43,470 nt of DNA from Treponema sp. (GTDB taxonomy: Bacteria > Spirochaetota > Spirochaetia > Treponematales > Breznakiellaceae): NCBI GenBank assembly GCA_031254315.1, contig JAIRUQ010000012.1, forward strand, positions 1 to 43,470. Reading direction: 5' to 3'. Of this stretch, positions 6,000 to 43,314 are shown in pieces (positions within the stretch are counted from its first letter, which is position 1; each line of letters opens with the position of its first letter). The notes under the pieces are model-generated. The model searched no databases. It had not been told where the DNA came from and saw only the letters and a program-made list of their open reading frames with translations. A program made the position numbers and the translations under genes.

Positions 6000-6033
6000 G
6001 GGGTGTTTGGGCAAAAATTAAAAAAACCCCTTT
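6000..6033 (+). terminator. Weak intrinsic terminator after the protease gene
   Basis: GGGGTGTTT (6000-6008) can pair with AAAAAACCCC (6021-6030) with one mismatch, followed by only three T. It starts at the stop codon of the protease gene, fitting the end of the glycosidase-ppx-ppk-protease transcript. It overlaps the -35 box of the toxin-antitoxin promoter. Confidence 0.35.
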
Positions 6034-6066
6034 GACAAAGTAGGAAAAAAGTAGTATTTTAGTAGT
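6032..6066 (+). promoter_or_regulatory. Sigma70-type promoter of the mazEF-like pair, leaderless geometry
   Basis: TTGACA (6032-6037), a 17-bp spacer and TATTTT (6055-6060) are followed by six bases and then the ATG at 6067, so transcription should start at or next to the A of the start codon. There is no Shine-Dalgarno sequence. The octamer AGTAGTAT occurs twice, at 6050-6057 and 6061-6068, overlapping the -10 box and start codon. Such direct repeats could be the operator bound by the ribbon-helix-helix-like antitoxin. Confidence 0.75.
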
Positions 6067-6300
6067 ATGATAACAAAGACCAAAAAATCTGTTTCCCTGT
6101 CCAATGTTCTGTTACGGAAACTGGCAGTGCATAATCAAGAGAGAAATATTTCCCAATTCGTTGAAACTGCTTTGATTTATTACATCAATGAACTCGAAAA
6201 ACAGAAACGCGCTCAGCGTGATAAAAAAATAATAAACGCCAACGCAAAACGCTTTAATAAGCAGGCGGAAGAAAACCTGCAATTTCAGGCATTGATATGA
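6067..6300 (+). CDS. Antitoxin of a MazEF-like toxin-antitoxin pair, RHH-like
   Basis: A 77-residue basic protein whose N-terminus ([18 protein letters not shown], then [13 protein letters not shown]) has the beta-strand plus two-helix pattern of ribbon-helix-helix DNA-binding antitoxins. The charged, probably disordered C-terminus (about 48-77) would wrap the toxin. The stop codon overlaps the start of the toxin gene by 4 nt (ATGA), the usual coupled arrangement. Antitoxins of this type repress their own promoter; the repeated AGTAGTAT at the promoter is a candidate site. The start codon lies at the predicted transcription start, so the message is probably leaderless. Confidence 0.85.
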
Positions 6301-6623
6301 AGCGTGGGGAGCTTTACCGCGTTTCTCTGGGGTCAAAAACGGACACCAAAAAGCAAAGGGTGTATGTCATTGTTTCAAGACAGGCTCTTATAGACAGCGC
6401 TTATTCTACCCTTATCTGTGCGCCGGTATATACCAATTATGAAGGCTTAAGCACACAGGTTCAGGTTGGCATTAAAGAGGGCTTAAAGCATCCGAGCGCA
6501 ATACGTTGCGATGAATTAATAAGCATTCTAAAAACACGATTGACTGATTATGTGGGAATTCTTTCGGAGAAAAAACTTAGCGAATTGGGTTATGCTTTGT
6601 CTATAGCTATAGGAATTGACTAA
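6297..6623 (+). CDS. MazF/PemK-family endoribonuclease toxin
   Basis: A 108-residue protein of standard MazF length. It starts with the family signature [11 protein letters not shown], then has [24 protein letters not shown] and [21 protein letters not shown], matching the conserved beta-barrel core and the RCD-containing loop of PemK/MazF RNases. These toxins cleave mRNA at short motifs. It overlaps the antitoxin gene by 4 nt. The pair sits between the polyphosphate operon and a large lipoprotein gene and is likely an accessory insertion. Confidence 0.92.
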
Positions 6624-6665
6624 CGGCTTATAAGTTGGTAGAGAAAAGGCTATTTCCCAACTACG

Positions 6666-6686
6666 GCGGCTGACATAGCCAGCCGC
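6666..6686. terminator. Hairpin between convergent genes
   Basis: GCGGCTG (6666-6672) and CAGCCGC (6680-6686) form a perfect 7-bp stem with a 7-nt loop in the 84-nt gap between the toxin gene (+) and the lipoprotein gene (-). No strong T-run follows on either strand, so it is only a possible bidirectional terminator. AGTTGG and CCAACT a little upstream form a second weak inverted repeat. Confidence 0.4.
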
Positions 6687-6707
6687 TCAATTATTCTGCT
6701 TTACGGT

Positions 6708-8672
6708 TCACTCCCAAGACTCAGTTCCAGAGTTCCAATTTCCCAAATTCAAAACAATATTCGGGATGTCTCCATTACCATCGAGCATTATGTTAGGATC
6801 GTAATTATAAAAAGTAATGGACTGCCCTGCGGATTTATTGCCTGTTATATTAAACAAGAGTTTTGTATTGACCTCCTGTCCCTGTGTTGTAATTGACCAT
6901 TGATTATACCCCCCTATGGATGATGCACCAAGATAATAATAGCTGTTGTTAGCTTCTTTAATAGCAAAGGCTTCTATATAGATGAAAGAAGCCGGTTCAT
7001 TGTCATAAGTAACATTAACTGTTCCGCTCAGTGTGATAGGAGGAGAGATATTGCTCGTGATATTAATATTATCTATGTTTTGATCTTTGACTGTCATATC
7101 TAAATCCTGCCACAACAATCTAAATAAACTATCATCATCCCAACCATTGGGACCTTTGAAACCGTAAATAGAAAACCGTATGTCCGTATCCACATCAAAA
7201 GCCGCAATATTCATTGACCATGGCGTATTGTTTACTGCCGGTACAATGGGGATGGTTTCGCCAAGGATAGATAAGATATTTTCTTCGACAGCCTGTAATA
7301 CTATGGAGGGGACAGGACTATCATCATAATTAATATTGATTGTTCCGCTCAGGGTAATAATCTTTAGCTCTGCCAAGTTTATGTTAATCCCATCTATTGA
7401 CCGATTATAGAGCCATCTCTTAAGATTTTTAACATCAAAGCTGAACAGCATTGAAGAGGGATTGTAGGTATTATCTGCATAGCCTTTTACTCGAAATGAA
7501 ATCTCTTTTTCCCATGATAATGGTTGTGTAATCATGGACCATGCGGTATTTGCCACCGGTGAAGATAATCTGGTTCCTTCCTGCCAATTCCATGTCGCAT
7601 CATGAGCAATAATTTCTACATAGGGAATTGTTTGCCCATTGTTTTTAATGGTAATGGTTCCGCTCAGTGTGATAGAAACGTCCATAAATGTGATTTTAAT
7701 ACCACTTTTGTTTTCATTTTTGACCGATGCTGTAGCCAGATTCGATTGATAAAATAATGCTTGATCACCATCATTCTCCCAGGGGATTGAAGTGTTGAAA
7801 CCATAAACGGAAAATCTGATTTCCGTATCGGAATCAAAAGCCTCTATTACGACTGACCATGGCGTATTGTTTCCTACCTTCTGAATGTTCACTTCTCCAA
7901 GGAAAGGTATAAGGAAAGGTATATCGTTAACTCTATAGACTTGTATTTGCGCGGAAGGAAGAGGTTTCCCTGCATAACTGCCATTGATTGTTCCGCTCAG
8001 AGTAATGGTTTTTAGATTTGCCAAGTCTATGACGATACCGCTTATACTCCCATTAGAAACCATCTGCGTGAGATTTCTAACATCAATGGAGAACAGTGAA
8101 TTAACATACTTGTCATCCGAAAAGGCTTGTACCCGAAAAAGAATTTCCATCTCCGTTGATAGTGGTGTTGTAGTTATGGACCACTCAGTAACGCCATTTT
8201 CTCTTAAAGGAAGTCTGGTTTTCTCGCTCCAATTCCAGCTCAGATCATGGGCAGAAATTTGTACATAGGGAACCGGTCGTCCATTATTTTTAATCGTGAT
8301 GGTTCCGCTCAAGGTAATTGAGGGGGCGCTTCCTGCTTGTTTGACATTTTCAAAAGAAACAATAGCTTCTTTCAGGGTTTCCGTTGCCGTATCTACCGAT
8401 GACTGGCTTGATGAACTATTATCCCTGACTGCTTCCGCACTTTTAATGACTGCATTAAAAGTGTCCATATTGGGCTTGGTTACCCATTTGTACCCCTCGG
8501 CTACTTCCGATGCATTAGTTGCTATTTTAACATTGTATTTTGCATCCCAAGCATTTTGAATTTCCTTTTTAAGATCCGACATATTGGAACCCTGATCCGG
8601 CTCCGGACAAGCGGTAAAAACCAGCAAACCCGTCAATGCCAATATTCCTACCATAAAAAATCTTTTCTTCAT
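6708..8672 (-). CDS. Large repeat lipoprotein with FIVAR-like N-terminal domain
   Basis: A 654-residue lipoprotein. The ATG at 8672 is chosen because GGAGGG lies just upstream and MKKRFFMVGILALTGLLVFTAC is a typical signal with a spirochaetal lipobox ending in Cys 22. After the anchor comes a FIVAR-like helical segment (about residues 30-112, ending SVDTATETLKEAIVSF). Five Ig-like units of about 105 residues follow, each opening with ITLSGT. Units 1 and 3 resemble each other (KNNG...PY and AHD...WNW motifs), as do units 2 and 4 (NNTPWS and DTEIRFSVYGF-like motifs), so the array reads A-B-A-B-C. It should be a surface or periplasmic protein; no function can be assigned. Confidence 0.85.
   Translation of the reverse strand: MKKRFFMVGILALTGLLVFTACPEPDQGSNMSDLKKEIQNAWDAKYNVKIATNASEVAEGYKWVTKPNMDTFNAVIKSAEAVRDNSSSSQSSVDTATETLKEAIVSFENVKQAGSAPSITLSGTITIKNNGRPVPYVQISAHDLSWNWSEKTRLPLRENGVTEWSITTTPLSTEMEILFRVQAFSDDKYVNSLFSIDVRNLTQMVSNGSISGIVIDLANLKTITLSGTINGSYAGKPLPSAQIQVYRVNDIPFLIPFLGEVNIQKVGNNTPWSVVIEAFDSDTEIRFSVYGFNTSIPWENDGDQALFYQSNLATASVKNENKSGIKITFMDVSITLSGTITIKNNGQTIPYVEIIAHDATWNWQEGTRLSSPVANTAWSMITQPLSWEKEISFRVKGYADNTYNPSSMLFSFDVKNLKRWLYNRSIDGININLAELKIITLSGTININYDDSPVPSIVLQAVEENILSILGETIPIVPAVNNTPWSMNIAAFDVDTDIRFSIYGFKGPNGWDDDSLFRLLWQDLDMTVKDQNIDNINITSNISPPITLSGTVNVTYDNEPASFIYIEAFAIKEANNSYYYLGASSIGGYNQWSITTQGQEVNTKLLFNITGNKSAGQSITFYNYDPNIMLDGNGDIPNIVLNLGNWNSGTESWE
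7022..8312 (-). repeat. Five in-frame repeats inside the lipoprotein gene
   Basis: The words TTCCGCTCAG / TTCCGCTCAA recur on the + strand at 7022, 7343, 7658, 7991 and 8303, spaced 312-333 bp. They are the complement of the codons for LSGT-type unit starts. The A-B pair repeats with a period of about 640 bp, which points to duplication of a two-unit block. Confidence 0.8.
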
Positions 8673-9036
8673 TTTTGCCCTCCGTAAATAGCCCGAATTC
8701 AAGCCGCAAGCGAATATTAGAGTTGTTCGGAAACTTCAGTTTCTGAATAACTTCCTTTTAAAATTGAAAACCATTTTTTGTTAGTTTCTTCCGCTTATTA
8801 GTATATATATCTCAAAAATTGATTTTTGTCAAGGGGGGAAATAATATCAATAACTAAATTTATTTTAATTTAACATAAAAAGTAATAACCATATATATAA
8901 AACTTTTAAAATTCCAAGTTTATTTAATTATTTTTTATACTATTTTACGCTTTTATAGAGAAAAATATACAAGAAAACATTTTTTTCTCCACCTTTTCTT
9001 TTTCAATAGAGTTGCTTGAAACCACATAGATTACTT

Positions 9037-9189
9037 TTAACTTTTCTGTACAGTCTGCATTTGAGTGAAAATAACAGTATTCGCTCTCGGTGATACCCGC
9101 ACCGCTTCCGGCTCCGTGTCAAAGTCGATGTAAGAAATCTTTGCCTGTGAATCGGGTTTTGCAAGCACATCTGCGGCGGTGCGGATGCG
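9037..9189 (-). pseudogene. Possible C-terminal remnant of a decayed protein gene
   Basis: Read on the minus strand up to a TAA at 9039-9037, this patch gives a protein-like segment of about 50 residues containing RTAADVLAKPDSQAKIS and ending RANTVIFTQMQTVQKS. Its base composition is like that of neighbouring genes, in contrast to its AT-rich flanks. No start codon or ribosome site precedes it. A different frame over the same bases gives a basic, low-quality peptide and was rejected. I do not recognise the family. Confidence 0.3.
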
Positions 9190-9210
9190 TTTATAAACAT
9201 TTTTTATGAT

Positions 9211-9310
9211 GTATATACAGATATTTGGAGATAAGAGGCGTTTTAATGTCGCTTATCGCATTAGTATCTGCCCGTTTTAATGGCAGATACTTTTTAATAC
9301 CTGTATATAC
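9211..9310. repeat. 100-bp three-stem element with two hairpins sharing one loop sequence
   Basis: An outer stem pairs GTATATACAGATATT (9211-9225) with AATACCTGTATATAC (9296-9310), 14 of 15 positions. Inside it are two hairpins: GATAAG/CTTATC (9230-9235 with 9252-9257, extended by GGC/GTC) and a perfect 10-bp stem AGTATCTGCC/GGCAGATACT (9263-9272 with 9282-9291). Both hairpins present the same apical 10-mer CGTTTTAATG (9239-9248 and 9273-9282). The whole folds as a three-way junction. On the + strand the second hairpin is followed by TTTT, so it could also act as a terminator. It lies 41 nt beyond the stop of the minus-strand membrane protein gene. Confidence 0.7.
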
Positions 9311-9351
9311 TATTTTATATAATATTCCTGTTGTTAGGTGCTATTTTTGCT

Positions 9352-9720
9352 TTATGTTTCTTTTTTTATTGCTGAAATTAGTTGAGCAATTAACGCAATA
9401 ATAAAACCGGTTCCCATTACATAAGCCCCATATTGTAATTCCAGTTCATTTTTGCTCAACAAGATAATGCCAATGACTAAACAACCAATTATAATTAGCC
9501 AATCGGCAATAACCGGCAGATTTTTTTTCATTAACAATAGAGCGCCAATTATAAGTCCGACAACCGCTAATATGAACAATACAATTATAAATACGCCAAC
9601 TGAGTTATCGACATATTCAACAAGCTGAAATGCGTTCATATCACAAGCCACAGGCATAAAAAAGCCGATGATTGCCAATAGAAAACCGAATTTACCAATT
9701 GTTCTGAAATTAAACGTCAT
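9352..9720 (-). CDS. Small four-helix membrane protein of unknown function
   Basis: A 122-residue very hydrophobic protein with about four transmembrane segments (residues about 8-25, 41-65, 69-88, 98-117) separated by short polar turns, and a C-terminal KKET. There is no recognisable enzymatic motif. The start is supported by GGAGG 6 nt upstream of the ATG and by a promoter further up. The gene is flanked on both sides by hairpins containing GTATATAC, which raises the question whether it belongs to a small transferable unit. Function unknown. Confidence 0.7.
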   Translation of the reverse strand: MTFNFRTIGKFGFLLAIIGFFMPVACDMNAFQLVEYVDNSVGVFIIVLFILAVVGLIIGALLLMKKNLPVIADWLIIIGCLVIGIILLSKNELELQYGAYVMGTGFIIALIAQLISAIKKET

Positions 9721-9749
9721 AAAAAACCTCCATAAATAGTTTTATGCTT

Positions 9750-9779
9750 TAATTAAGCATATTTTTTACTTTGTGTCAA
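9750..9779 (-). promoter_or_regulatory. Promoter of the small membrane protein gene
   Basis: On the minus strand TTGACA (9779-9774) is followed after 17-18 bp by TTAATT/TAATTA. The -10 region lies inside the imperfect palindrome ATGCTT-TAATT-AAGCAT (9744-9760), a possible operator or leader hairpin. The -35 box directly abuts the hairpin at 9780-9812. Confidence 0.55.
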
Positions 9780-9812
9780 GTATATACGAATATTTTTTAT
9801 ATTTGTATATAT
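9780..9812. repeat. 14-bp AT-rich hairpin with GTATATAC arm
   Basis: GTATATACGAATAT (9780-9793) pairs with ATATTTGTATATAT (9799-9812), with two G-T pairs in the folded strand and a 5-nt loop. Its arm begins with the same GTATATAC as the outer stem at 9211-9310, on the other side of the small membrane protein gene. Confidence 0.5.
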
Positions 9813-10054
9813 TATGTTACTGAAACATCTAACGTACATTATCAGCCCTTTTTCTGTTTTTAATTCTCTTGCTGATTATTCATAATGGTTTTATGCCAAA
9901 GCTTTTAATGTTTTGATTTGTTTCAGCCGAAGAAAATCTTCGGGTGAGTACAAGTCACAGCGAACCTTTGGTTCTATGGCGGTGTTCTATAATAATTTTC
10001 CTTACACTCTCCGGCTACGGGGATGTATTAAATCCTACTTTCGAATAAATGCCA
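9813..10054. other. Intergenic region with two small triloop hairpins
   Basis: No gene is seen. Two tight hairpins stand out: CCGAAGA-AAA-TCTTCGG (9927-9943) and GAACC-TTT-GGTTC (9962-9974), both with 3-nt loops. They lie downstream of the minus-strand bspA-like gene but lack T-runs, so a role in termination is not supported. Confidence 0.45.
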
Positions 10055-11848: not shown

Positions 11849-11902
11849 AAAAACTCCTTCTTATTGTGTTTCTCCTTTGCGGAGCATCATTAAAATAAAT
11901 AT

Positions 11903-11937
11903 AAAAAACCGATGTTCCCGTATACGCAGAACCCCGG
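11903..11937 (-). promoter_or_regulatory. Terminator-like hairpin in the bspA-like leader
   Basis: On the minus strand CCG and GTTC pair with GAAC and CGG around a small internal loop, and the stem is followed by TTTTTT (complement of 11903-11908). It lies about 55 nt upstream of the start codon, where it could act as an attenuator if transcription starts further upstream. Weak evidence. Confidence 0.3.
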
Positions 11938-12071
11938 CGTTTTTTCTGTGGACATAAATATTATGTGAAAATGCTCTATTAAGTAATAATTACTGTAATT
12001 TTGCCTCATTATAAATATAATGCCAATTTTAGAAAAAGGTTACAAGGGACTCTATTGAAAAAGCGACATCT

Positions 12072-12531: not shown

Positions 12532-12568
12532 GGCCCCCAAATGAACTCTTTAGGGGCATACATAACTG
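12448..12568. repeat. 121-nt foldback (nested inverted repeat) just upstream of the secA promoter
   Basis: CAGTTATGTATGCCCC (12448-12463) pairs perfectly with GGGGCATACATAACTG (12553-12568). TAAAG (12466-12470) pairs with CTTTA (12548-12552), and GGGG (12478-12481) with CCCC (12534-12537). The 22 bases at 12482-12503 then pair perfectly with 12510-12531 around a 6-nt loop (CTCCGC). It arises because an inverted partial copy of the repeat unit faces the third direct copy. It ends 13 bp before the -35 box of secA. Confidence 0.85.
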
Positions 12569-12581
12569 CAGAGCCGACCCA

Positions 12582-12610
12582 TTGATAACTTGCATTTTTA
12601 CCTATATACT
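12582..12610 (+). promoter_or_regulatory. secA promoter, leaderless geometry
   Basis: TTGATA (12582-12587), 17 bp and TATACT (12605-12610) form a near-consensus sigma70 promoter. Six bases (GCCCCC) separate the -10 box from the ATG of secA, so the transcript should begin at the start codon. No purine-rich ribosome site is present. Confidence 0.8.
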
Positions 12611-12616
12611 GCCCCC

Positions 12617-15397
12617 ATGTTTGAGAAATTCTTCAAAGCCCTTTTCGGCTCCCAGCACGAGCGGGACTTAAAAGCTATTCTTCCAATACTTCACAGGGTA
12701 AACGAAAAAGAGTCTTGGGCGGCATCCCTTGCGGCGCAGGAATTTCCCCGCCAAACCGCCTCGTTCCGCGAGCGCTACAAAAACGGCGAAAGCCTCGACA
12801 GCATTTTGCCGGAAGCCTTCGCCCTCGCGCGTGAAGCCGCGCGCAGAACACTTGGCGAGCGCCCCTACGATGTTCAGGTGCTTGGCTCTATCGTTCTGCA
12901 TCAGGGAAAAATAGTGGAAATGAAAACAGGCGAAGGCAAGACATTGATGTCGGTAGCCGCCGCTTATTTGAACGCCATTCCCGGGAACGGACTCCATGTT
13001 GTTACCGTGAACGATTATTTGGCAAGCCGCGACGCTGAGTGGATGAGACCGATTTTTAGCAGTCTTGGACTGACAGTCGGGACAATTCTTTCCCACATGG
13101 ACAATGTTCAGCGCAAAGAAAATTATAACTGCGACATCACTTACGGAACAAATAATGAATTTGGTTTTGATTACCTCCGCGACAACATGCACCGCGAAAT
13201 GGAAGGTCGCGTTCAAAGAGGACACAATTACTGTATCGTGGACGAGATCGATTCAATTTTAATTGACGAGGCGCGAACTCCGTTGATAATTTCAGGCGCG
13301 GCGGAAGATGACACTTTTAAATTTGCCGAAGTTGATAAACTGCTTGGAACCCTTACTGAAGTAGAAAAAAAAGAAAACGGCGAATATCCTGATGAAACCA
13401 GAGGCGAGGAAATAATCGGCGATTATAAAATTAACGAAAAAAATAAAAGTATTTCTTTTAGCAATCAGGGACTGACAAATATAGAAGAAATACTTAAAAA
13501 ACGAAACCTTATTCAGGGCGCGATTGTAGATGTCGAAAATTTTGAGTACATTCACTATTTTACGCAGGCGTTAAGAGCGCATAAACTTTTCCATATTGAT
13601 GTTGATTATGTTGTTGATGACGGACAAGTTCAAATTGTTGATGAATTTACCGGACGCATTCTGCAGGGCAGACGTTATTCCGACGGACTGCATCAGGCGA
13701 TTGAAGCAAAGGAGCGAATCAAAATAGCCCAGCGCAACAGAACTCTGGCGACAATTACCTTTCAAAACTATTTTAGGTTGTACAAAAAAATATCAGGAAT
13801 GACAGGAACTGCTGATACCGAAGCTGTCGAGTTCAATAAAATCTACAAACTTGACGTTGTTGTCATTCCTACAAACCTGCCTGTCGCCAGAAAAGACGAA
13901 AACGATCTTGTCTACCTTAACGAATCCGACAAATACAAAGCGTTATGTGATGAAATAGCGGAGGCGAATAAAAAAGGACAGCCGATGCTGGTTGGTACGG
14001 TTTCAATCGAAAAGTCCGAAAAAATTTCCTCTCTGCTTTCGCGCAGGGGAGTACGCCACGAAGTGTTAAACGCAAAAAACCACGCGCGGGAAGCGCTCAT
14101 TATTGCCGAAGCCGGCGCGAAAGGTTCTGTCACAATTGCAACTAACATGGCGGGACGCGGTACTGACATCAAACTTGGAGGCAACCCCGAATCTCGAGCG
14201 CACCGCCGAGCGGGAACAGGCGCGAGCGAAGAACAATACGCGGCTATTTATAAAGAAGAGTACGAAAAGTGGAAAAATGATTATGAAGAAGTAAAAGCCA
14301 CAGGCGGTCTTTATGTAATAGGAACCGAGCGCCATGAAAGCAGACGTATCGACAATCAGCTTCGAGGGCGTTCGGGGCGTCAGGGCGATCCGGGAAAGAG
14401 CAAATTTTTTATATCGATGGACGATGAACTTATGCGCCTTTTCGGTGGAGAGAAGATGAAGAACATCATGTCAAGGATTGGTATGGAAGGCGGAGAGCCG
14501 ATTTATCACCCAATGTTGAGCAGGAGCATAGAGAACGCGCAGAAAAAAGTAGAGGAGCGCAACTTTGAAATTCGCAAACACCTTTTGGAATTTGACGATG
14601 TATTGAACCAGCAAAGAAAATTCATTTATGAACAGCGTGATGCGATACTTGTTGATAACGATATGAAAAAGCGCGTAAATGACGCGACATCTGACATTTT
14701 GGGTGATTATATTGACGAGTTTAATAACGCGAGCAGAAATGATTTAAACGAGGCGATAAAAGAGATTACGGAACGCCTGCGCACAAACTTCGGTTATACT
14801 CTTAGTCTTGATCCTGACGGCAAGGAATTTAGAAATCCCGAAATGCTGGAAGCGCACATTAAAGCCGGTCTTGAGAAGGATATAAAAGATAAGGAAGATA
14901 TTATCGGTCATGATTACCTTAATTTATTTATCCGTGATAACTACCTTAATTCTATAGATCGCAAATGGCTTGATCATCTTGAAAACATGGAAGCCCTTCG
15001 TGAAGCCGTATACCTCCGTCATTATGCGCAAAAAAATCCCCTAACAGAATACAAAGTTGAAGGCTTCCAAATTTTCGAGAAAATGATAGAAGAGATAAGG
15101 CAGGAAATCGCGTCGCGGATTCACCTTATCCGTATTCAGGTAACAGAAGGCGGACCGCAAAGGACTGTAAGCCGCTCTATCGGCGCAAATCAGTCGGCGA
15201 GCCACAGCAGTATGGGCTCTTTCGCGGGCGGCGCTTTTGCCGGAAGCCAGCAAGGCTCTTCCGCCGCATCCTCACAGATGGAAAAGGCAAGCCGCCCTGA
15301 GGGTGCGACTGTTGTTCGCAGTCAGCCAAAGGTCGGTCGCAACGATCCCTGCCCGTGCGGCAGTGGTAAAAAGTATAAAATGTGTCACGGACGCTAG
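12617..15397 (+). CDS. secA: Preprotein translocase ATPase SecA
   Basis: A 926-residue SecA, the motor that pushes preproteins through SecYEG. Visible parts: Walker [10 protein letters not shown] near residue 103, DEID Walker B near 208, the preprotein-binding domain region (about 225-360), second helicase core with [16 protein letters not shown] near 510 and [12 protein letters not shown] near 583, and the C-terminal zinc-binding SEC-C tail ([14 protein letters not shown]). The ATG at 12617 is chosen because homologues start close to [11 protein letters not shown]; nine codons upstream are open but would overlap the promoter. Notably the start codon is 6 nt after the -10 box and lacks a Shine-Dalgarno site. 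Confidence 0.98.
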
Positions 15398-21265: not shown

Positions 21266-21295
21266 TTGAAAAAAATTGTGTTATAATGGTATAAT
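21266..21295 (+). promoter_or_regulatory. Promoter of the TRAP transporter operon
   Basis: TTGAAA (21266-21271), 18 bp and TATAAT (21290-21295) precede the ATG of tatT by only 9 bases, so the leader would be about 3 nt. No ribosome site is present. A second TATAAT at 21282-21287 is too close to the -35 box. Confidence 0.7.
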
Positions 21296-29455: not shown

Positions 29456-29484
29456 TTGACAATCCGGCTGATTTTTGCTAAACA
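29456..29484 (+). promoter_or_regulatory. Promoter upstream of purF
   Basis: TTGACA (29456-29461), 17 bp and TAAACA (29479-29484). Transcription would start near 29490-29491, which coincides with the first ATG of the small leader frame. Confidence 0.6.
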
Positions 29485-29489
29485 TATAC

Positions 29490-29543
29490 ATGATGAACAA
29501 AGGCGTTTATCGGCATATTGATATGGGATCGATCTGCCGGTGA
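29490..29543 (+). CDS. Possible leader peptide of purF (17 residues)
   Basis: A 17-codon frame encodes MMNKGVYRHIDMGSICR. Its two start ATGs lie exactly where the purF transcript should begin, and its stop codon falls at the start of the descending arm of the following terminator-like hairpin. There is no ribosome site, so it would be translated as a leaderless message, as several genes in this window appear to be. It contains no run of a single amino acid, so which signal it would sense is unclear. It may be coincidence. Confidence 0.35.
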   Translation: MMNKGVYRHIDMGSICR

Positions 29544-29554
29544 ACGCCTTTTTT
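29499..29554 (+). promoter_or_regulatory. Attenuator-like hairpin in the purF leader
   Basis: AAAGGCGTT (29499-29507) pairs with AACGCCTTT (29543-29551). After a 3x3 internal loop, CGGCA (29511-29515) pairs with TGCCG (29535-29539). A six-T run (29549-29554) completes an intrinsic-terminator-like shape. The GAGGGG ribosome site of purF (29555-29560) follows at once, so the structure could control transcription or translation of purF. It does not match the purine riboswitch consensus as I know it. Confidence 0.6.
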
Positions 29555-29571
29555 GAGGGGAAATCATAAAA

Positions 29572-36311: not shown

Positions 36312-36323
36312 TCTAATCCTGCG

Positions 36324-36779: not shown

Positions 36780-37022
36780 GGTTTAGATACCGTATATTTT
36801 AGCATTTTTTTCTATATAAGTGCAATTATGTATGGTTAGGGTTGTCATGAAATTTCAATTTTGAGGGCTCCCATTAAAAAATACGTGTTTTTATAGGGTT
36901 TTTGCCCAAAAAACGCAGTTTTTGTAATAGATAAAATAAAAACTAATAAACATCATTATTTTGAAAAAAAGCCTGTTTTTTTCTTTCAAAGACAGATTTT
37001 TGACAAATTACTGGTCTTTCAC

Positions 37023-37051
37023 TTGACTTTTTTGTATTTTTAGTAGATATT
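37023..37051 (+). promoter_or_regulatory. Promoter of the chemotaxis operon, near leaderless
   Basis: TTGACT (37023-37028), 17 bp and GATATT (37046-37051), with the ATG of cheA 7 nt later and no ribosome site. A second TTGACA at 37000-37005 has no matching -10 box. The motif TAGTAGATATTAGTA resembles the TTAGTAGTAT region at the mazE-like start. Confidence 0.6.
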
Positions 37052-37058
37052 AGTACTT

Positions 37059-39431
37059 ATGAGTGATTATCTTGATCCTAACAATGAGGAACTCCTCAAG
37101 GACTTTTTCAGCGAGGCTCAAATGCAAGTAGATACATTGGAACAAAACGTTCTGGTTCTCGAAACCGGGGGCGCCAATAAAGACGCTGTGGACGAGATTT
37201 TTCGTGCTGCTCATACCCTCAAAGGCGGATCCGCAACAGTAGAAATGATGGAGCTTTCTCATTTTACCCATCTTGTTGAGGATGTTTTTGACGCTATTCG
37301 TTCAGATCAAATTTCAGTAAATGAAGATGTAGTAGATACCTTGCTCCAAGCTATTGACGTTATTAAAGCTATGCTTGATCAGCGGATGAATGGCTCTGTT
37401 TATCAGGATGATACTTCTGAAATCGAAGGTAAACTTCGCGCATTAATGGGTCCTGCTCCGGCAAAAAAGGGGAGCGCTCCGGTAAAAGCTCCGCCTGTTG
37501 CGGCTCCCGTAGCCGCCGCGCCCGCTCCTTCCGCAGGAGGTCAGGCGCTTACCGAAAACGAGTTGGAAGAATTAAAACAATCAGTTGACGGCGGAATGCC
37601 AATATACAAAGTTTCCGTCAATTTTGATGAAAGCAGTCTTATGAACACAGTTGGCGGCATTCAAGTTTATTCTGTTCTTAAAGGACAGGGAACAATCCTT
37701 AAAACTGTTCCCGATTTTGATCAGCTTTATGCCGACAACTTTTTCCCGGTTGTGGATTATTATGTCGCGTCTACTGCGGATACTCAGAAATTACAGAAAT
37801 CCTGTATTATGCCGGATGTGAGTCTCAGCGCGCAAGTAACAAATCTTTCCGATCTTGCTCCGGCGAAAGCCGCCGCTCCGGCTCCAAGACCTGCTCCAGC
37901 GCCAGCCCCGGCTCCTGCCGCCGCAACGCCAGCCGCCGCTCCGGCAACACCTGCCGCCGCGCCAGCCGCCGCCGCACCAACTGCGCAAAAATCCGCCGCC
38001 GCTTCGGAAGACGCAAAGAAAGCCGGAAAAGAAGCCGGTTCTATTCTGCGCGTAGACTCCAAGCGAATTGACGATCTTCTAAACCTTGTTTCTGAAACCG
38101 TTATTACCAAAGCGACTTTCAACCAGATCAATATGCAGTTCTCTGAGCTTACAAACCAGCTCCGTGATATTGAAAATCAATACCGTGATAAAATTAAAAG
38201 TTTGTTCGATGAACTGCCGAATTTCTTGGAAAGCATTCAGGAAGGCAAATCTGTTAAAGATATTCGCAAGGATATAAACGATTCTTATGGCGATATTTTC
38301 TCACTCTTTGATGATTTTGAAACATCGTTTAAGGGCAGTATAGCAAAGTTCCGTTCTACTTCGCAGAACCTTGGGCGTATTACAGGTGAACTTCAGGAAG
38401 GCGTAATGCGGATTCGCATGGTTCCAATCAGCCAGATATTCAGCCGTTTCCCGCGCCTTGTACGCGACCTTTCAAAATCACTCAACAAAAAAATCAATCT
38501 GGTCATCGAAGGTGAAGATACAGAACTTGACAAGTCCGTTATCGAAGACCTTCTTGATCCAATCATGCACTCAGTGCGTAACTCTATCGACCACGGAATT
38601 GAATCTGCGGAAGAACGCAAAGCCGCCGGTAAGTCGGAAGAAGGCACTGTCCTTCTTAAAGCCGCCAACGAAGGCAACATGATCGTGATTGAAATCGGGG
38701 ATGACGGCAAGGGTATAAATGTTGACGCTGTTAAGGCAAAAGCCATTGAGCGCGGTATTATCAGCCCGAATAAAATCCTCACCGATGTAGAAGCCTTCAA
38801 TTTAATTTTTGAACCCGGATTTTCTACCGCGCAATCAATTACTGCTATTTCAGGACGCGGTGTCGGTCTTGATGTTGTGCGCCGTAAGATTGACGAGCTT
38901 AACGGAACGGTTACCGTCAATTCTGAACATGGAAAGGGAACCAAGTTTATTATCAAACTGCCGCTTACATTGGCTATTATTCAGGGCTTGCTTGTTCGTG
39001 TCGGACCGGAAATCTATTCTATTCCGATTACTTCGGTTATTGAAAGTTTGCGGATCAGACCGGAAGAAATCAAAAAAATCGATAATTATGAAGTTTTCAA
39101 TATTCGCAGTGATGTTATTTCCTTACTGCGGCTTAACCGGTTGTTTGGCATCAAAACCGAAGAAGATTCGGATTATCACTTTATTGTAATTGTAGGAACG
39201 GCGGAGAAAAAGATGGGCTTCATGGTAGACAGTCTTATTGGCGAAGAAGATGTTGTTATCAAACCGCTAAGGGATCAATTTACCAACTCACCGGGAATTG
39301 CGGGAGCTTCAATATTGGGAGACGGCTCGGTTTCTCTTATTATTGATGTAAGTCAGCTTCTTGAGCTTGGGCTTAAGAAAGAGATGGAGCAACGCCGAAT
39401 CCGCGAATCTTCAATAAAAGGCGGCAGGTAA
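37059..39431 (+). CDS. cheA: Chemotaxis histidine kinase CheA
   Basis: A 790-residue CheA. The Hpt domain has the phosphorylated H52 in AAHTLKGGSATVEM. A P2-like region (about 160-260) is followed by a long Ala/Pro linker (about 270-325). The dimerisation domain (about 335-450) is longer than in enteric CheA, with an inserted helical stretch (QYRDKIKSLFDELPNF onward), as described for atypical spirochaetal arrays. Then come the ATPase with HSVRNSIDHGIE, GDDGKGIN and GRGVGLDVV, and the CheW-like P5 domain. It phosphorylates CheY and CheB. It starts at the predicted transcription start with no Shine-Dalgarno site; the fused cheW gene follows after 1 nt. Confidence 0.97.
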   Translation: MSDYLDPNNEELLKDFFSEAQMQVDTLEQNVLVLETGGANKDAVDEIFRAAHTLKGGSATVEMMELSHFTHLVEDVFDAIRSDQISVNEDVVDTLLQAIDVIKAMLDQRMNGSVYQDDTSEIEGKLRALMGPAPAKKGSAPVKAPPVAAPVAAAPAPSAGGQALTENELEELKQSVDGGMPIYKVSVNFDESSLMNTVGGIQVYSVLKGQGTILKTVPDFDQLYADNFFPVVDYYVASTADTQKLQKSCIMPDVSLSAQVTNLSDLAPAKAAAPAPRPAPAPAPAPAAATPAAAPATPAAAPAAAAPTAQKSAAASEDAKKAGKEAGSILRVDSKRIDDLLNLVSETVITKATFNQINMQFSELTNQLRDIENQYRDKIKSLFDELPNFLESIQEGKSVKDIRKDINDSYGDIFSLFDDFETSFKGSIAKFRSTSQNLGRITGELQEGVMRIRMVPISQIFSRFPRLVRDLSKSLNKKINLVIEGEDTELDKSVIEDLLDPIMHSVRNSIDHGIESAEERKAAGKSEEGTVLLKAANEGNMIVIEIGDDGKGINVDAVKAKAIERGIISPNKILTDVEAFNLIFEPGFSTAQSITAISGRGVGLDVVRRKIDELNGTVTVNSEHGKGTKFIIKLPLTLAIIQGLLVRVGPEIYSIPITSVIESLRIRPEEIKKIDNYEVFNIRSDVISLLRLNRLFGIKTEEDSDYHFIVIVGTAEKKMGFMVDSLIGEEDVVIKPLRDQFTNSPGIAGASILGDGSVSLIIDVSQLLELGLKKEMEQRRIRESSIKGGR

Positions 39432-39432
39432 A

Positions 39433-40761
39433 ATGGCGGCAGTAATTAAAGATTTAGCGCAGGTAAACGCCGATTTACAAGAACAAAAAGAACGCGTAGA
39501 TAACGTAGATTTTAAAATGATCACTTTCTCTTTAGCGGGGAAAGACTACAGCGTTGATATTATGAACGTAAAAGAAATAGCGAAAGCCGATAAATTTACC
39601 TATGTGCCTAATGCCGCTTCTTATGTCCGGGGCGTTTATAACCTTCGCGGCGACATTATCCCGATTATCGACCTTAGGCTGTTCTTCCATTTACCTGTAG
39701 ACCACAAAGAAGTCAACCTTGAAAATATGCTTATCCTGCGTATTAATGAACAAGTTTACGGAACAATTGTAGACAAAATCGATAAAGTCGTCGGGATTAA
39801 CCACGATTCAATCCAGCCGCCGCACCCGATTTTTGGCGACATTAACATTAAATACATAAGCGGCGTTGTAGAAAAAGAGGGCGATCTTTATATCATTCTT
39901 GATGTTGTCCGTATATTTACAGTAACAGAAGAGGACAAAAACAAGTCACGAGGCTCGGTTGGGGAGGGGGAATATTTTGTCCCGCCGCCGCAGGCAAGCG
40001 AACAATCTCTGCAGAAAGCCGCCGCCGATACGGCTATTGGCTTTATTCAGGAAAGCCTTGCGGCTTTAAAGCGGTTTGTTGTTACAGACATAAACAGCAG
40101 GTGGCTACAAAGGCGTTTTTCCGAGTGGAGTATGGGTCGTTCAGGAGAAGATTTACAGGTAAAGAGCGCCTCGGAAGCCGAGGACTTCTTAAACAATTTC
40201 GAATCTCCGTGTTCAAACGAGTTCTGGACAGAGTCTTATGCCAATACCGTCAAGAAAATCCTTCCTGATAGTTCTGCGGCAAATATCAATGTTTGGAATG
40301 TTGGTTGCGGAAAGGGCTATGAAACTTATTCTTTTGCCTGTATACTTAGAAATAAGTATCCTAATGCTCATATAAAAATATGGGCAAACGATAACGATAT
40401 TATGGCTGTTTCGCAGGCTCCAAACATGGCTTTTAATTTTGAAGAAATGCCGGATTATTGCAGGGCTTATGCGGTACACGGGACAAGCGGCTATTCGTTT
40501 AATCAGGTTATAAAGGACTCGATTGTTTTCGAGTATCATGATATAACTAATGATAACACCTTGCCGGATTTGGACATTATCCTTATCAGGGATATCCTTT
40601 CATTCTTGCCGGCGCAGGATCAGACAAGGATAGTTGGGGATTTTTCAGAGAAGATGAAAAATCGTGGAATTGTTATAATGGGTAGGAATGAAGAGCTTAC
40701 CGGGGCTATTTGGCAGGCAATAGCCGATGATCCCGTTTCAGCTTTCATGCATGACGCATAA
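39433..40761 (+). CDS. CheW fused to a CheR-like domain
   Basis: A 442-residue protein. Residues about 25-170 are CheW (MITFSLAGKDYSVDIMNVKEIAKA and NLRGDIIPIIDLRLFF). After a linker, residues about 210-435 resemble the CheR methyltransferase: VWNVGCGKGYETYSFACIL where CheR has its SAM-binding GCSTGEE-type loop, WANDNDIMAVSQA, and ILIRDILSFL in place of the usual FCRN. The changes at these positions raise doubt about methyltransferase activity. CheW-CheR-like fusions are known in spirochaetes and are thought to be structural parts of receptor arrays. It starts 1 nt after the cheA stop. Confidence 0.93.
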   Translation: MAAVIKDLAQVNADLQEQKERVDNVDFKMITFSLAGKDYSVDIMNVKEIAKADKFTYVPNAASYVRGVYNLRGDIIPIIDLRLFFHLPVDHKEVNLENMLILRINEQVYGTIVDKIDKVVGINHDSIQPPHPIFGDINIKYISGVVEKEGDLYIILDVVRIFTVTEEDKNKSRGSVGEGEYFVPPPQASEQSLQKAAADTAIGFIQESLAALKRFVVTDINSRWLQRRFSEWSMGRSGEDLQVKSASEAEDFLNNFESPCSNEFWTESYANTVKKILPDSSAANINVWNVGCGKGYETYSFACILRNKYPNAHIKIWANDNDIMAVSQAPNMAFNFEEMPDYCRAYAVHGTSGYSFNQVIKDSIVFEYHDITNDNTLPDLDIILIRDILSFLPAQDQTRIVGDFSEKMKNRGIVIMGRNEELTGAIWQAIADDPVSAFMHDA

Positions 40762-40782
40762 TAAAACTTAAAGGAGTGAATT

Positions 40783-41259
40783 ATGAGAGTTGAGTATATC
40801 AACCCCTTTGTGGAGTCAGCTTACAGTGTGCTGAAAGAAGTATTAAACTCTGACGTAAAACGGGGTGACATATATCTTAAGCCCACTTCCATGGCAATTA
40901 TGGGAGTTGCCGCCCTTGTAGGGCTTGCCGGCGATGTGGAAGGTCGTGTCCTTTTTGACATGACAAAAGCCTCTGCTTTATTTGTTTCCGGAAAAATGAA
41001 CGGTGAAACTTTTACGACACTTGACGAAATGGCTAAGGCGACAATACAAGAGCTTGCGAACATGATCACCGCACAGGCGGTAACAAAGTTGCACGATCTT
41101 GGCTTTAAATTTGACCTTACCCCGCCCGCGCTCTTTACAGGCGATAATATGGAAGTTTCTACAAACCTCGGTGAAGTGGAAGCCCTTATAGTACCTATGG
41201 AGCTTGAGGGTGGTAGTAAAATTGAAGTCAACGTCGCTATCCGCGAACGTGTAAAATAA
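40783..41259 (+). CDS. cheX: CheX, CheY-phosphate phosphatase
   Basis: A 158-residue CheX. The catalytic motif ExxN is present as E90-L-A-N93 in KATIQELANMITAQA. The opening YINPFVESAYSVLKEV and the Gly-rich MGVAALVGLAGDVEGRV fit the family. CheX dimers dephosphorylate CheY-P and matter for reversal control in spirochaetes. AAAGGAG precedes the ATG. In Treponema the next gene is usually cheY, but here the coding run stops and a tRNA gene follows about 240 nt later. Confidence 0.95.
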   Translation: MRVEYINPFVESAYSVLKEVLNSDVKRGDIYLKPTSMAIMGVAALVGLAGDVEGRVLFDMTKASALFVSGKMNGETFTTLDEMAKATIQELANMITAQAVTKLHDLGFKFDLTPPALFTGDNMEVSTNLGEVEALIVPMELEGGSKIEVNVAIRERVK

Positions 41260-41279
41260 GCGCTTCATAAGCTATTAGG

Positions 41280-41309
41280 GTTGTTCACAGGCTCCGGTTT
41301 CTGAACAAC
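41280..41309 (+). terminator. Possible terminator after cheX
   Basis: GTTGTTCA (41280-41287) and TGAACAAC (41302-41309) form a perfect 8-bp stem. The T-run (TTTTT) comes only about 14 nt later, so it is a weaker candidate than the tRNA terminator. It lies about 20 nt after the cheX stop. Confidence 0.45.
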
Positions 41310-41442
41310 TCTATAATTCAATTTTTGTCAAAGTCTCTTCTGTGTGTTATGCGAATAGTTAAAATCATCTCCATTCCCGTTTAAGTTTTTTTAATATTCT
41401 CATGTAAACAAAGTTCTTTTCATTTCGCGGACAGGCGTTCTA

Positions 41443-41471
41443 TTGACACTTTTTGCGGTGTGGGGTATAGT
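41443..41471 (+). promoter_or_regulatory. Promoter of the tRNA-Val gene
   Basis: TTGACA (41443-41448), 17 bp and TATAGT (41466-41471). Transcription should start near 41478, about 19 nt before the mature tRNA. Confidence 0.85.
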
Positions 41472-41496
41472 TTCCCCAGCACCTTGACCAGTATCA

Positions 41497-41570
41497 GGGC
41501 GGTTAGCTCAGTTGGTTAGAGCACTAGCTCGACACGCTAGGGGTCACAAGTTCAAGTCTTGTATCGCCCA
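41497..41570 (+). tRNA. tRNA-Val (GAC), C at position 33
   Basis: All arms fold: acceptor GGGCGGT / ATCGCCC, D arm GCTC / GAGC, anticodon stem CTAGC / GCTAG, T arm ACAAG / CTTGT, discriminator A73. The 7-nt anticodon loop reads TCGACAC, giving anticodon GAC and thus valine. Position 33 is C rather than the nearly universal U. The CCA end is not encoded (the sequence continues AAATC), so it must be added enzymatically. It is transcribed alone, from its own promoter, and is followed by a strong terminator. Confidence 0.93.
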
Positions 41571-41579
41571 AATCTTTTT

Positions 41580-41618
41580 GGGAGTAAATTGGGTGAACCC
41601 TGGTTTACTCCCTTTTTT
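41580..41618 (+). terminator. Intrinsic terminator of the tRNA-Val gene
   Basis: GGGAGTAAA (41580-41588) and TTTACTCCC (41604-41612) form a perfect 9-bp stem followed by TTTTTT (41613-41618). Confidence 0.92.
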
Positions 41619-41625
41619 AACTCCC

Positions 41626-41654
41626 TTGACAAGCCGTACCAATTTTGGTACACT
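41626..41654 (+). promoter_or_regulatory. Promoter and palindromic operator of the higBA-like pair
   Basis: TTGACA (41626-41631), 17 bp and TACACT (41649-41654). The interval contains GTACCAA-TT-TTGGTAC (41636-41651), an inverted repeat with 7-bp arms between the two promoter boxes, where a bound dimer would block RNA polymerase. The HTH antitoxin encoded downstream is the natural candidate. The ATG follows the -10 box by 6 nt, with TATAAT (41655-41660) directly before it; that hexamer is 23 bp from the -35 box and is less likely the -10. Confidence 0.8.
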
Positions 41655-41660
41655 TATAAT

Positions 41661-42035
41661 ATGCTTCATAATCTTGACGGGAAATCTCTGACAGTATATT
41701 TCTACAAAACTCTCGCTGGTAATGAGCCGGTAAGGGAATGGTTGAAAAAGCGGAAACCGGAAGAAAGAAAGGTAATAGGAGAGGATATTAAGGCAGTCGA
41801 ATTTCTCTGGCCTGTTGGGTATCCACAAGTTACCAAACTGGACAAAGATTTATGGGAAGTCAGGACAAATTTACCAAGTGGTATTTGCAGGCTCTTTTTT
41901 ACAGTTTGGAAGCGATATATGGTTTTATTGCATGGTATTATAAAAAAGAGCCAGAAAACGCCGCAACAGGATTTAGACCATGCTAAAAAACTAAGGAATA
42001 GGGTAATGGCAGGAGGAATAAACAATGAAGAATAA
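41661..42035 (+). CDS. RelE/HigB-like toxin (Gp49 family)
   Basis: A 124-residue protein with the phage Gp49/HigB pattern: VREWLKKRKPEERKVIGEDIKAVEFLWP, then PQVTKLDKDLWEVRTNLPSGICRLFFTVW and a basic helix VLLHGIIKKSQKTP followed by a hydrophilic tail. These toxins are ribosome-dependent RNases. Toxin-first order, with the antitoxin overlapping by 11 nt, is typical of HigBA. The start ATG at 41661 has no ribosome site and coincides with the predicted transcription start. Confidence 0.9.
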   Translation: MLHNLDGKSLTVYFYKTLAGNEPVREWLKKRKPEERKVIGEDIKAVEFLWPVGYPQVTKLDKDLWEVRTNLPSGICRLFFTVWKRYMVLLHGIIKKSQKTPQQDLDHAKKLRNRVMAGGINNEE

Positions 42036-42306
42036 AGCTATTGGCAGTTCATTTGATGATTTTCTCGCTGAAGAAGGTATCAGCGAGGAAGTGGAGGCTG
42101 GAGCCATAAAAAAAATTATTGCCTATCAATTACAGGAAGCTATCAAGAGAGAACATCTTTCAATGACCACTTTGGCTACACGGCTTGAAACTTCCCGTGC
42201 CGCAGTCAACAGGCTTCTTGATCCTGATAATGAATCTATTACATTATTAACCCTTAAAAAGGCGGCGAATGTTTTAGGGAAAAAACTGCGGGTTGAATTG
42301 GTATAA
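42025..42306 (+). CDS. HigA-like XRE antitoxin
   Basis: A 93-residue protein with an XRE helix-turn-helix in the C-terminal half (HLSMTTLATRLETSRAAVNRLLDPDNESITLLTLKKAANVLGKKL). It should bind the toxin and repress the promoter at 41626-41654. GGAGG lies about 6 nt before its ATG inside the toxin gene. Recognition is by fold and context. Confidence 0.9.
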   Translation: MKNKAIGSSFDDFLAEEGISEEVEAGAIKKIIAYQLQEAIKREHLSMTTLATRLETSRAAVNRLLDPDNESITLLTLKKAANVLGKKLRVELV

Positions 42307-42378
42307 GGGAATTAGTTGAAAACTGGTTAGTGCATCTTTTGCACATACCACCCGTCATCGATTAAGGGAAATTCAGTC

Positions 42379-42408
42379 TCTCTCTGCGCCTTCGCGCCTC
42401 TGCGTGAG
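42379..42408. repeat. CTCTGCG-type intergenic repeat
   Basis: TCTCTGCG-CCTTCGCG-CCTCTGCGTGAG shows an about 9-nt period like the CTCCGTG repeats at 17311 and 21093 but with different bases. It fills the gap between the toxin-antitoxin pair and the BspA-like gene. Confidence 0.6.
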
Positions 42409-42454
42409 GTCTTTTGAGAATAAGTTAACGCATATGGTGCCTGTTACCATGACC

Positions 42455-42483
42455 TTGCAATTTCCCCCATTTCCCCCTAAACT
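42455..42483 (+). promoter_or_regulatory. Putative promoter of the second BspA-like gene
   Basis: TTGCAA (42455-42460), 17 bp and TAAACT (42478-42483), each matching 4 of 6 consensus bases. The ATG at 42490 again begins 35 nt after the first base of the -35 box, and there is no ribosome site. The boxes are weak on their own; the shared spacing is the main support. Confidence 0.5.
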
Positions 42484-42489
42484 AAGAAT

Positions 42490-43314
42490 ATGCACATAAA
42501 AAAAGGTTTTGTTCTGCTGTTTTTCAGCCTTTCCGCCGGTGTTTTCGGCGATACAGGGCTTGAAATTATCGTTGAGGAAAATTCAAGCGGGCTGACAATA
42601 GTAAAATCAACGGGGAGCGCGGCAACTCTGGAAATACCGGATACCATCGACGGCAAACAGGTTACGGTCATCGGTAACGGGGCGTTTACCGGCAAGGGCT
42701 TAACGGCGGTAACCATCCCCGACAGCGTTACAAGTATCGGCAACGGGGCTTTTTCGTTTAACCTGCTTGAAACGGTTACCGTCGGCGACGGGGTTACGGT
42801 TATCGGAACGGGGGCCTTTACCGGCAACAAGCTGGCTACGGTGTCCCTGGGCGGCAATATTACCAATATCGGGAAATGGGCTTTTTCCAATAACCAAATA
42901 GCGGCGGTAACCATTCCCGACAGCGTTACCGTTATTGACGACTACGCTTTTTTCAACAATAAAATAAGGGAGATAGCGATTCCCGGCAATGTCACCGTGA
43001 TAGGGGAGGGGGCTTTTTCCGGCAACAGGCTTACCGGTGTTGAAGTCGGCGGCGGCGTTACAAGAATCGGCGACGGGGCTTTTTACAACAACAGGATCAC
43101 AAGCGTTACCATACCGCCGTCGCTGGAAACTATGGGGAAAAGGGCTTTTGACAGCCGTTCCCCCGACGGCCGTATCCGGGGCAATGTCAGCTATATCGAT
43201 GCGGGCGGTAACGTTCTTTTTACCACGGCGGACAATTTCGACACCTACTACGCCTCAAACGGCAAAAAGCCGGGGAGGTACACCCTTTCCGACGGAAGCT
43301 GGCACCTTGAATAA
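42490..43314 (+). CDS. Exported BspA-type leucine-rich-repeat protein, short form
   Basis: A 274-residue protein with a signal peptide (MHIKKGFVLLFFSLSAGVFG). About eight BspA-type repeats of 22-23 residues follow (for example TAVTIPDSVTSIGNGAFSFN), then a short closing domain with Tyr/Gly-rich end (YYASNGKKPGRYTLSDGSW). It lacks the PPC domains of the longer homologue at 10055-11848. Base composition is richer in G+C than its neighbours. A surface or periplasmic binding role is inference. The start is supported by the signal sequence and not by a ribosome site. Confidence 0.85.
   Translation: MHIKKGFVLLFFSLSAGVFGDTGLEIIVEENSSGLTIVKSTGSAATLEIPDTIDGKQVTVIGNGAFTGKGLTAVTIPDSVTSIGNGAFSFNLLETVTVGDGVTVIGTGAFTGNKLATVSLGGNITNIGKWAFSNNQIAAVTIPDSVTVIDDYAFFNNKIREIAIPGNVTVIGEGAFSGNRLTGVEVGGGVTRIGDGAFYNNRITSVTIPPSLETMGKRAFDSRSPDGRIRGNVSYIDAGGNVLFTTADNFDTYYASNGKKPGRYTLSDGSWHLE

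What the first reader, a model, noticed from the sequence alone, without database searches (positions are those of the whole stretch)
6032..42492. Recurrent leaderless promoter geometry before several unrelated genes
In front of the mazE-like gene (6032 to 6067), secA (12582 to 12617), the higB-like gene (41626 to 41661) and the second bspA-like gene (42455 to 42490), the ATG begins exactly 35 nt after the first base of the -35 box, with a 17-bp spacer and no ribosome site. cheA differs by one base (36). tatT has a leader of about 3 nt, and the possible purF leader ORF sits at 34. Other genes nearby have normal AGGAG sites. The bspA-like promoter is the weakest case, with 4 of 6 matches in each box. 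The pattern suggests that this organism translates a set of mRNAs without leaders, including essential (secA) and signalling (cheA) genes.
Basis: partly seen in the sequence, partly recalled or inferred. Interest (0 to 1): 0.75.

Follow-up and report, generated by a model that had tools for sequence, protein, structure and literature searches.

The report
Leaderless genes in a treponeme
Several genes in this spirochaete, including the essential secretion motor secA and some toxin-antitoxin genes, have their promoter so close to the start codon that the messenger RNA probably begins at the start codon itself, a known but little-studied way of starting translation that relatives have kept for secA.

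Summary
Four window genes have a -35 box, 17 bp, a -10 box, 6 nt, then ATG. In the window's own genome the strict form (TTGACA/17/TANNNT/6/ATG) occurs 27 times, against 4.3 per gap on average at the other gaps of 0-30 nt. Over 149 genomes of the phylum it occurs 1022 times, against 302 with a 14-nt gap. In secA it is conserved: TANNNT sits at gap 6 in 45 of 60 non-redundant upstream regions, and a -35-like box begins at 35 nt in 36 of 60. The mazE-like and higB-like genes keep it in relatives too. cheA has a near-zero rather than exact leader. The purF 'leader ORF' lies in a terminator-like hairpin. Added here: among 28 toxin-first operons chosen because the toxin looked leaderless, the next gene has a strong ribosome site in 23 (all called genes: 62 of 317). 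Leaderless genes were already known in spirochaetes (Leptospira) and in M. tuberculosis toxin-antitoxin modules, so this is a new member of a known kind. No transcript start was measured.

The parts
6032..6060 (+). promoter of mazE-like antitoxin: TTGACA, 17 bp, TATTTT; 6 nt before ATG
   Evidence: 17/6 geometry in all five relatives whose antitoxin could be aligned, L211, L212, L213, L215, L231; 15 other loci with a mazF match gave no alignable antitoxin
6067..6300 (+). predicted leaderless mazE-like antitoxin ORF (77 aa), overlapping mazF
   Evidence: no Pfam match for the antitoxin itself
6297..6623 (+). MazF/PemK toxin ORF; start overlaps the antitoxin end, no strong SD
   Evidence: PF02452, E 2.5e-13
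12582..12610 (+). promoter of secA: TTGATA, 17 bp, TATACT; 6 nt before ATG
   Evidence: TANNNT at gap 6 in 45 of 60 non-redundant upstreams
12617..15397 (+). secA, predicted leaderless
   Evidence: SecA Pfam domains
21266..21295 (+). promoter of tatT: TTGAAA, 18 bp, TATAAT; 9 nt before ATG 21305 (leader about 3 nt)
   Evidence: PF16811; relatives not examined
37023..37051 (+). promoter of cheA: TTGACT, 17 bp, GATATT; 7 nt before ATG 37059
   Evidence: -35 box at 35-39 nt in orthologs
37059..39431 (+). cheA, predicted leader about 0-4 nt
   Evidence: CheA Pfam domains
41626..41654 (+). promoter of higB-like toxin: TTGACA, 17 bp, TACACT; 6 nt before ATG
   Evidence: promoter at gap 5-7 in 7 of 10 homologous loci tested, own included
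41636..41651 (+). near-palindrome GTACCAATTTTGGTAC between -35 and -10, possible operator
   Evidence: 14 of 16 positions symmetric; similar sequence in L170 (by eye)
41661..42035 (+). HigB-like toxin (Gp49/DUF891), predicted leaderless
   Evidence: PF05973, E 3.2e-16
42011..42016 (+). AGGAGG ribosome site of the antitoxin, inside the toxin gene
42025..42306 (+). HigA-like antitoxin (helix-turn-helix), SD-led
   Evidence: PF13744, E 8.5e-6, 25.9 bits against a cut-off of 27
42455..42483 (+). promoter of bspA-like gene: TTGCAA, 17 bp, TAAACT; 6 nt before ATG 42490
   Evidence: of six relatives at 62-70% identity, L140 has TTGAAA/17/TAAACT/6, L144 and L145 have 17/TATAAT/7, L143 has 17/TATAAT/8, L141 and L142 have none
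42490..43314 (+). BspA-type leucine-rich-repeat protein, possibly leaderless
   Evidence: PF13306
29456..29551 (+). purF promoter (TTGACA, 17 bp, TAAACA) followed at once by a terminator-like hairpin; the short ORF at 29490 lies in it
   Evidence: fold -32.8 kcal/mol, z -6.2, then a U run; hairpin in L318 without the ATG; no Rfam match at gathering scores; PurF-type Pfam domains downstream

Best explanation
These are ordinary sigma-70-type promoters placed so that RNA polymerase starts at, or within about one base of, the A of the start codon. The mRNA then has no leader and no SD site, and would be translated by the leaderless route, with the 5'-terminal AUG (sometimes GUG) bound by an initiator-tRNA-loaded ribosome. 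Shown here: the boxes, the fixed distance, its genome-wide excess and its conservation. Inferred: the transcript start and the mode of translation. In secA the arrangement is old: it is kept in most of the treponeme order and in several other families of its class. In toxin-antitoxin operons it is likely part of expression control: the first gene has no ribosome site and, where the toxin comes first, the antitoxin has a strong one, which should favour antitoxin over toxin from one mRNA.
For: Own genome: 27 strict hits at gap 6 against 4.3 per other gap; 21 of 27 open ORFs of at least 75 codons. Phylum: 1022 against 302 hits over 149 genomes; gap 6 exceeds gap 14 in 117, ties in 19, is lower in 13. 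secA: TANNNT at gap 6 in 45 of 60 non-redundant upstreams, at most 10 of 60 at any other gap; at gaps 5-7 in 72 of 77 before thinning. Other ORFs of at least 300 codons in the secA loci (271 ORFs, 323 ATGs) also peak at gap 6 (26; other gaps 1-15) and at -35 distances of 35 nt (13) and 36 nt (7; others at most 5). The geometry stays where sequences differ: mazE-like relative L215 has a different spacer sequence but the same 17/6 spacing, and toxin genes L287, L295 and L271 have GTG exactly 35 nt from the first base of the -35 box. Within the BrnT family, of 28 loci examined (30 fetched, 2 below the cut-off left out) 24 had an in-frame ATG: at the nearest ATG 11 have a promoter at gap 5-6 and no SD, 9 have an SD and no such promoter, 4 have neither, none has both.
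Against: No 5' end was mapped. The gene-level excess in the 438-kb sample is modest (18 of 318 against 5-12 for other gap triples). Of nine secA loci in the class outside f5, L180 and L181 have gap 9 and L188 has only a weak -35. In cheA TANNNT is at gap 6 in 2 of 21. Some families show no excess of gap 6 over gap 14: f5 0 against 6, f23 1 against 5, f34 4 against 4, f12 none of either; and little in f20 (10 against 9) and f37 (24 against 21). SD absence at gap 6 is partly trivial, because the -10 box occupies the SD position.
Confidence: 0.85

Rival explanations
1. In the toxin-first operons the promoter at the start codon serves to make mRNA from which the toxin is hardly translated, so it is in effect an antitoxin promoter; toxin protein would come from another, longer transcript. 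This is how a review describes the second hicAB promoter of E. coli.
For: The next gene has an SD 5-mer in 23 of 28 such operons against 62 of 317 called genes. PMC5535158 (passages): a promoter near the toxin ribosome site gives a truncated mRNA with a weakened toxin site.
Against: Does not explain secA, cheA or mazE-like antitoxins. A second, upstream promoter was not looked for. ATG or GTG is found at exactly the predicted transcript start, which suggests that it is used.
Confidence: 0.3
2. The promoters are real but the mRNAs have short leaders of 2-5 nt, or the main transcript comes from a promoter further upstream, so translation is not leaderless in the strict sense.
For: tatT (gap 9), cheA orthologs (-35 at 35-39 nt), secA of L180 (gap 9) and bspA relatives L143-L145 (gap 7-8) have such spacings; a second TTGACA lies further upstream of purF (sequence printed).
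Against: The sharp peak at gap 6 in secA (45 of 60; 4, 1 and 0 at gaps 8, 9 and 10) and genome-wide.
Confidence: 0.12
3. Chance matches to loose consensus sequences in AT-rich DNA.
For: The bspA-like boxes match only 4 of 6 each; a scan with 4-of-6 boxes gives several unrelated hits in the window.
Against: Enrichment at one gap and cross-species conservation.
Confidence: 0.03

Closest known systems
Bacterial leaderless ('TA-led') genes, Zheng et al. 2011 (PMC3160421; passages seen)
   Same: TANNNT about 12 bp upstream of the start, read there as leaderless; Spirochaetes listed with 6 of 18 genomes positive, mean 3.9% of genes (1.8-6.9)
   Different: Here also a -35-like box at a fixed 35 nt, and conservation in one essential gene across a class
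Leaderless mRNAs of Leptospira interrogans mapped by dRNA-seq (PMC5243855; passages seen)
   Same: A spirochaete; 184 genes with transcript start equal to the translation start at 30 C, about 440 with leaders under 10 nt
   Different: A distant lineage (recalled, not looked up); 'secA' does not occur in its main text; no promoter motif but sigma-54 was identified there
Leaderless toxin-antitoxin modules of Mycobacterium tuberculosis (PMC3898074; passages seen)
   Same: Leaderless transcripts predominate in toxin-antitoxin pairs: 32 of 37 with a primary start
   Different: No conserved -35 there; the toxin-without, antitoxin-with SD asymmetry was not in the passages I saw
E. coli hicAB second promoter (review PMC5535158; passages seen; original paper not read)
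   Same: A promoter near the toxin ribosome site makes mRNA with weakened toxin translation
   Different: Here the promoter lies exactly at the start codon and recurs in HigB, BrnT and HicA families; whether another promoter exists was not tested

Membership tests
Bacterial leaderless (TA-led) genes | -10 box (TANNNT) about 6-7 nt upstream of the start codon | tested here: met
   secA, mazE-like, higB-like and bspA-like at gap 6; cheA at gap 7 but with GATATT
Bacterial leaderless (TA-led) genes | no Shine-Dalgarno site | tested here: met
   none for these starts; SD-like core in 4 of 77 secA upstreams, in three of them (L037, L040, L058) 12 nt from the ATG, in L081 close to it
Bacterial leaderless (TA-led) genes | positional enrichment beyond chance in the genome | tested here: met
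   weaker in the gene-level sample
Bacterial leaderless (TA-led) genes | transcript 5' end at the start codon | not testable with these tools
   no RNA data; needs 5' end mapping
Bacterial leaderless (TA-led) genes | translation of the leaderless mRNA | not testable with these tools
   needs a reporter or ribosome profiling
hicAB second-promoter type of TA control | toxin gene first, second gene with its own SD | tested here: met
   window HigBA and 22 of 27 other selected toxin-first operons; in L249 the second gene is a hybrid with a BrnT remnant
hicAB second-promoter type of TA control | a second, upstream promoter that gives translatable toxin mRNA | not tested
   no search made
Type II HigBA toxin-antitoxin module | Gp49/RelE-type toxin followed by HTH antitoxin | tested here: met
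   PF05973 above cut-off; PF13744 at 25.9 bits, just under its cut-off of 27

The most novel reading that the evidence does not exclude
Leaderless start is a regulatory class in treponemes: secA, cheA and the toxin genes of at least three toxin families share it, so one change in the translation machinery that favours leaderless mRNA (for example altered initiation-factor balance or damaged ribosomes) would raise secretion, chemotaxis signalling and toxin output together, while antitoxin output, which depends on SD sites, would fall.
Probability: 0.2. Interest if true: 0.7.

Novelty: new member of a known kind. Interest (0 to 1): 0.45.

Why it matters
It gives a clear, testable prediction of which genes lack leaders in a group of spirochaetes, and shows one essential gene, secA, keeping this arrangement over long evolutionary time. 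The toxin-without, antitoxin-with ribosome-site design offers a simple way for a toxin-first operon to make excess antitoxin, and can be tested with reporters in laboratory strains. It also warns that start-codon prediction relying on SD sites may misplace such genes.

Tried and rejected
Chance origin of the pattern: rejected for the set. purF leader ORF as a leaderless gene: not supported, because the ORF lies in a terminator-like hairpin and L318 has the hairpin without the ATG. The hairpin was seen in L318 only; the five other close purF relatives (L319-L323, 74-80% identity) and the partial L344 showed no like structure in my script, nor did the distant ones, so the attenuator reading is weak too. 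A first control on other ORFs in the secA loci was contaminated by secA itself and was redone. Palindromes in the promoter spacers were scored but no null was run, so no enrichment is claimed. PADLOC gave only weak NsnC matches for two of eight toxin or antitoxin proteins.

Rows left out before counts. secA: of 80 loci, L067 and L075 begin inside the gene and L086 at the contig edge, and L023 has a short upstream; 76 loci plus the window gave 77. Toxin-first operons: the 28 were chosen as leaderless beforehand: 6 own-genome, 11 BrnT, 7 HicA and 4 HigB loci. Of the 12 HicA loci that I count as leaderless-like, five were not used (L290, same upstream as L289; L294, L299, L305 and L311, where only another candidate ATG has the promoter), and of the HigB loci L172, L178 and L179 were not used; L174 was used although its -10 (TATACC) is not TANNNT. 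The start of the second gene was chosen within -60 to +45 nt of the toxin stop with SD preferred; the same scan at the stops of called genes gives 62 of 317. The sample is therefore not unbiased.

Papers: in the rows listed by searches (several lists were capped, e.g. 12 of 79 and 12 of 84) I saw no title or abstract on leaderless secA or on this toxin/antitoxin asymmetry in treponemes. Only open-licence papers are held, so this is weak evidence of absence.

Full report
What is there. The four sites are exactly as described, to the base. The window lies in a 3.10-Mb genome of 127 contigs; its SecA is 87% identical to that of a Treponema metagenome bin, Emb289P3bin135. That this and the nearest other bins come from termite guts is my recollection of the isolate codes, not a tool result. 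Predicted start of transcription: six bases intervene between the -10 box and the start, which puts it on the A of ATG (general knowledge of sigma-70 promoters).

Is it more than chance? The strict pattern TTGACA/17/TANNNT/6/ATG has 27 hits in the own genome and none for the tool's reversed control. With the gap free from 0 to 30 the total is 155 (control 20), so the other 30 gaps average 4.3. Across 149 genomes of the phylum gap 6 gives 1022 hits and gap 14 gives 302; the 15 genomes of families f1-f3, in the window's order, give 210 against 33. Not every family shows it: f5 (four small genomes) 0 against 6, f23 1 against 5, f34 4 against 4, f20 10 against 9, f37 24 against 21. In a 438-kb sample of the own genome (20 stretches plus the window, 318 called genes) the promoter pair peaks at gap 6 (12 hits against 0-6), and at gene level 18 of 318 genes have it at gaps 5-7 against 5-12 for other gap triples. 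From these excesses I estimate that very roughly 3-7% of genes are leaderless, in the range that Zheng et al. give for spirochaetes.

secA. From 80 relatives, 76 upstream regions plus the window's were usable and 60 remained after removing near-duplicates. TANNNT is at gap 6 in 45 of 60, and a -35-like box (at least 4 of 6) begins 35 nt before the ATG in 36 of 60 and 36 nt in 10 of 60. In a second set of 30 genomes over the phylum, 6 of 9 loci of the class outside f5 meet the full test (families f2, f3, f4, f6, f7) and none of the 9 has an SD; the other three have gap 9 (L180, L181) or a weak -35 (L188). Of the 21 remaining loci (f5 and outside the class), 13 have an SD-like core, 2 (both of family f10) have the leaderless geometry and 6 have neither. 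So leaderless secA is old in this class and not universal in the phylum.

Other window genes. mazE-like: the antitoxin could be aligned in 6 of 21 loci with a mazF match, own included, and all 6 have the 17/6 geometry. higB-like: 7 of 10 loci tested, own included, have a promoter at gap 5-7, one with GTG and one (L178) with a weak -35 and low similarity; L171 is SD-led. cheA: the -35 box is kept at 35-39 nt in orthologs, with a variable -10. bspA-like: of six relatives one has 17/6 before a start eight codons further out, three have TATAAT at gap 7-8, two have neither. tatT has gap 9.

Toxin-antitoxin genes. Of the 21 strict own-genome hits that open an ORF of at least 75 codons, nine are toxin or antitoxin genes by Pfam or by their partner: three Gp49-type toxins besides... 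counting the window's own four (window higB, L004, L245, L249), one BrnT-like (L239, below the Pfam cut-off, partner CopG-type antitoxin also below its cut-off), one HicA (L252, with HicB), one HicB-like without a partner seen (L253), and two antitoxins named only by a MazF/PemK neighbour (window mazE, L251). In L249 the second gene is a hybrid that ends in a BrnT remnant, so that module looks broken. In the BrnT family 11 of 24 ATG-start loci are leaderless-like and 9 SD-led, with no overlap at the nearest ATG; in the HicA family 12 of 23 ATG-start loci (30 examined) have a promoter at gap 5-7 at one of the candidate ATGs (my count from the printed rows). Of 28 toxin-first operons selected as leaderless, 23 have an SD 5-mer before the second gene, against 62 of 317 called genes under the same scan. 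This works like the second hicAB promoter of E. coli as a review describes it, and leaderless toxin-antitoxin mRNAs are already known in M. tuberculosis.

Reading. The best-supported explanation is leaderless transcription from fixed-distance promoters, conserved in secA. That the mRNAs are translated from their 5'-terminal codon is inferred from ATG or GTG at that exact place and from reports in other bacteria (abstract of PMC8485053). The kind of system is known; the conserved secA case and the toxin/antitoxin asymmetry are, as far as the listed rows of my searches go, new details.

Noticed in passing
window 29456-29570: Strong terminator-like hairpin (-32.8 kcal/mol, z -6.2) directly after the purF promoter, also in relative L318 but not seen in L319-L323; may be a transcription attenuator of purF; no Rfam family matches at gathering scores.
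   Followed up: partly
window 41497-42490; L141, L142, L144, L145: The higBA module lies between tRNA-Val and the bspA-like gene; in these four relatives the bspA-like gene follows a tRNA-Val directly, which suggests insertion or loss of the module next to a tRNA gene.
   Followed up: partly
L260 and L273: BrnT-type genes with no ATG or GTG near the expected start: the position 34-36 nt from the -35 box holds ATT (L260) or ACG (L273). Possible rare start codons or decayed genes.
   Followed up: partly
L287, L295, L271, L179: Toxin genes with GTG in place of ATG at the leaderless position.
   Followed up: partly
L249 193-808: Gp49-type toxin whose second gene begins like the antidote of L245 and ends in a BrnT remnant: a rearranged toxin-antitoxin module.
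   Followed up: no
genome G138, same family: 64 strict gap-6 hits against 4 at gap 14, the highest count of the 149 genomes.
   Followed up: no
L002: TetR-family regulator, predicted leaderless, with a 20-bp near-palindrome (18 of 20 positions) in the promoter spacer.
   Followed up: no
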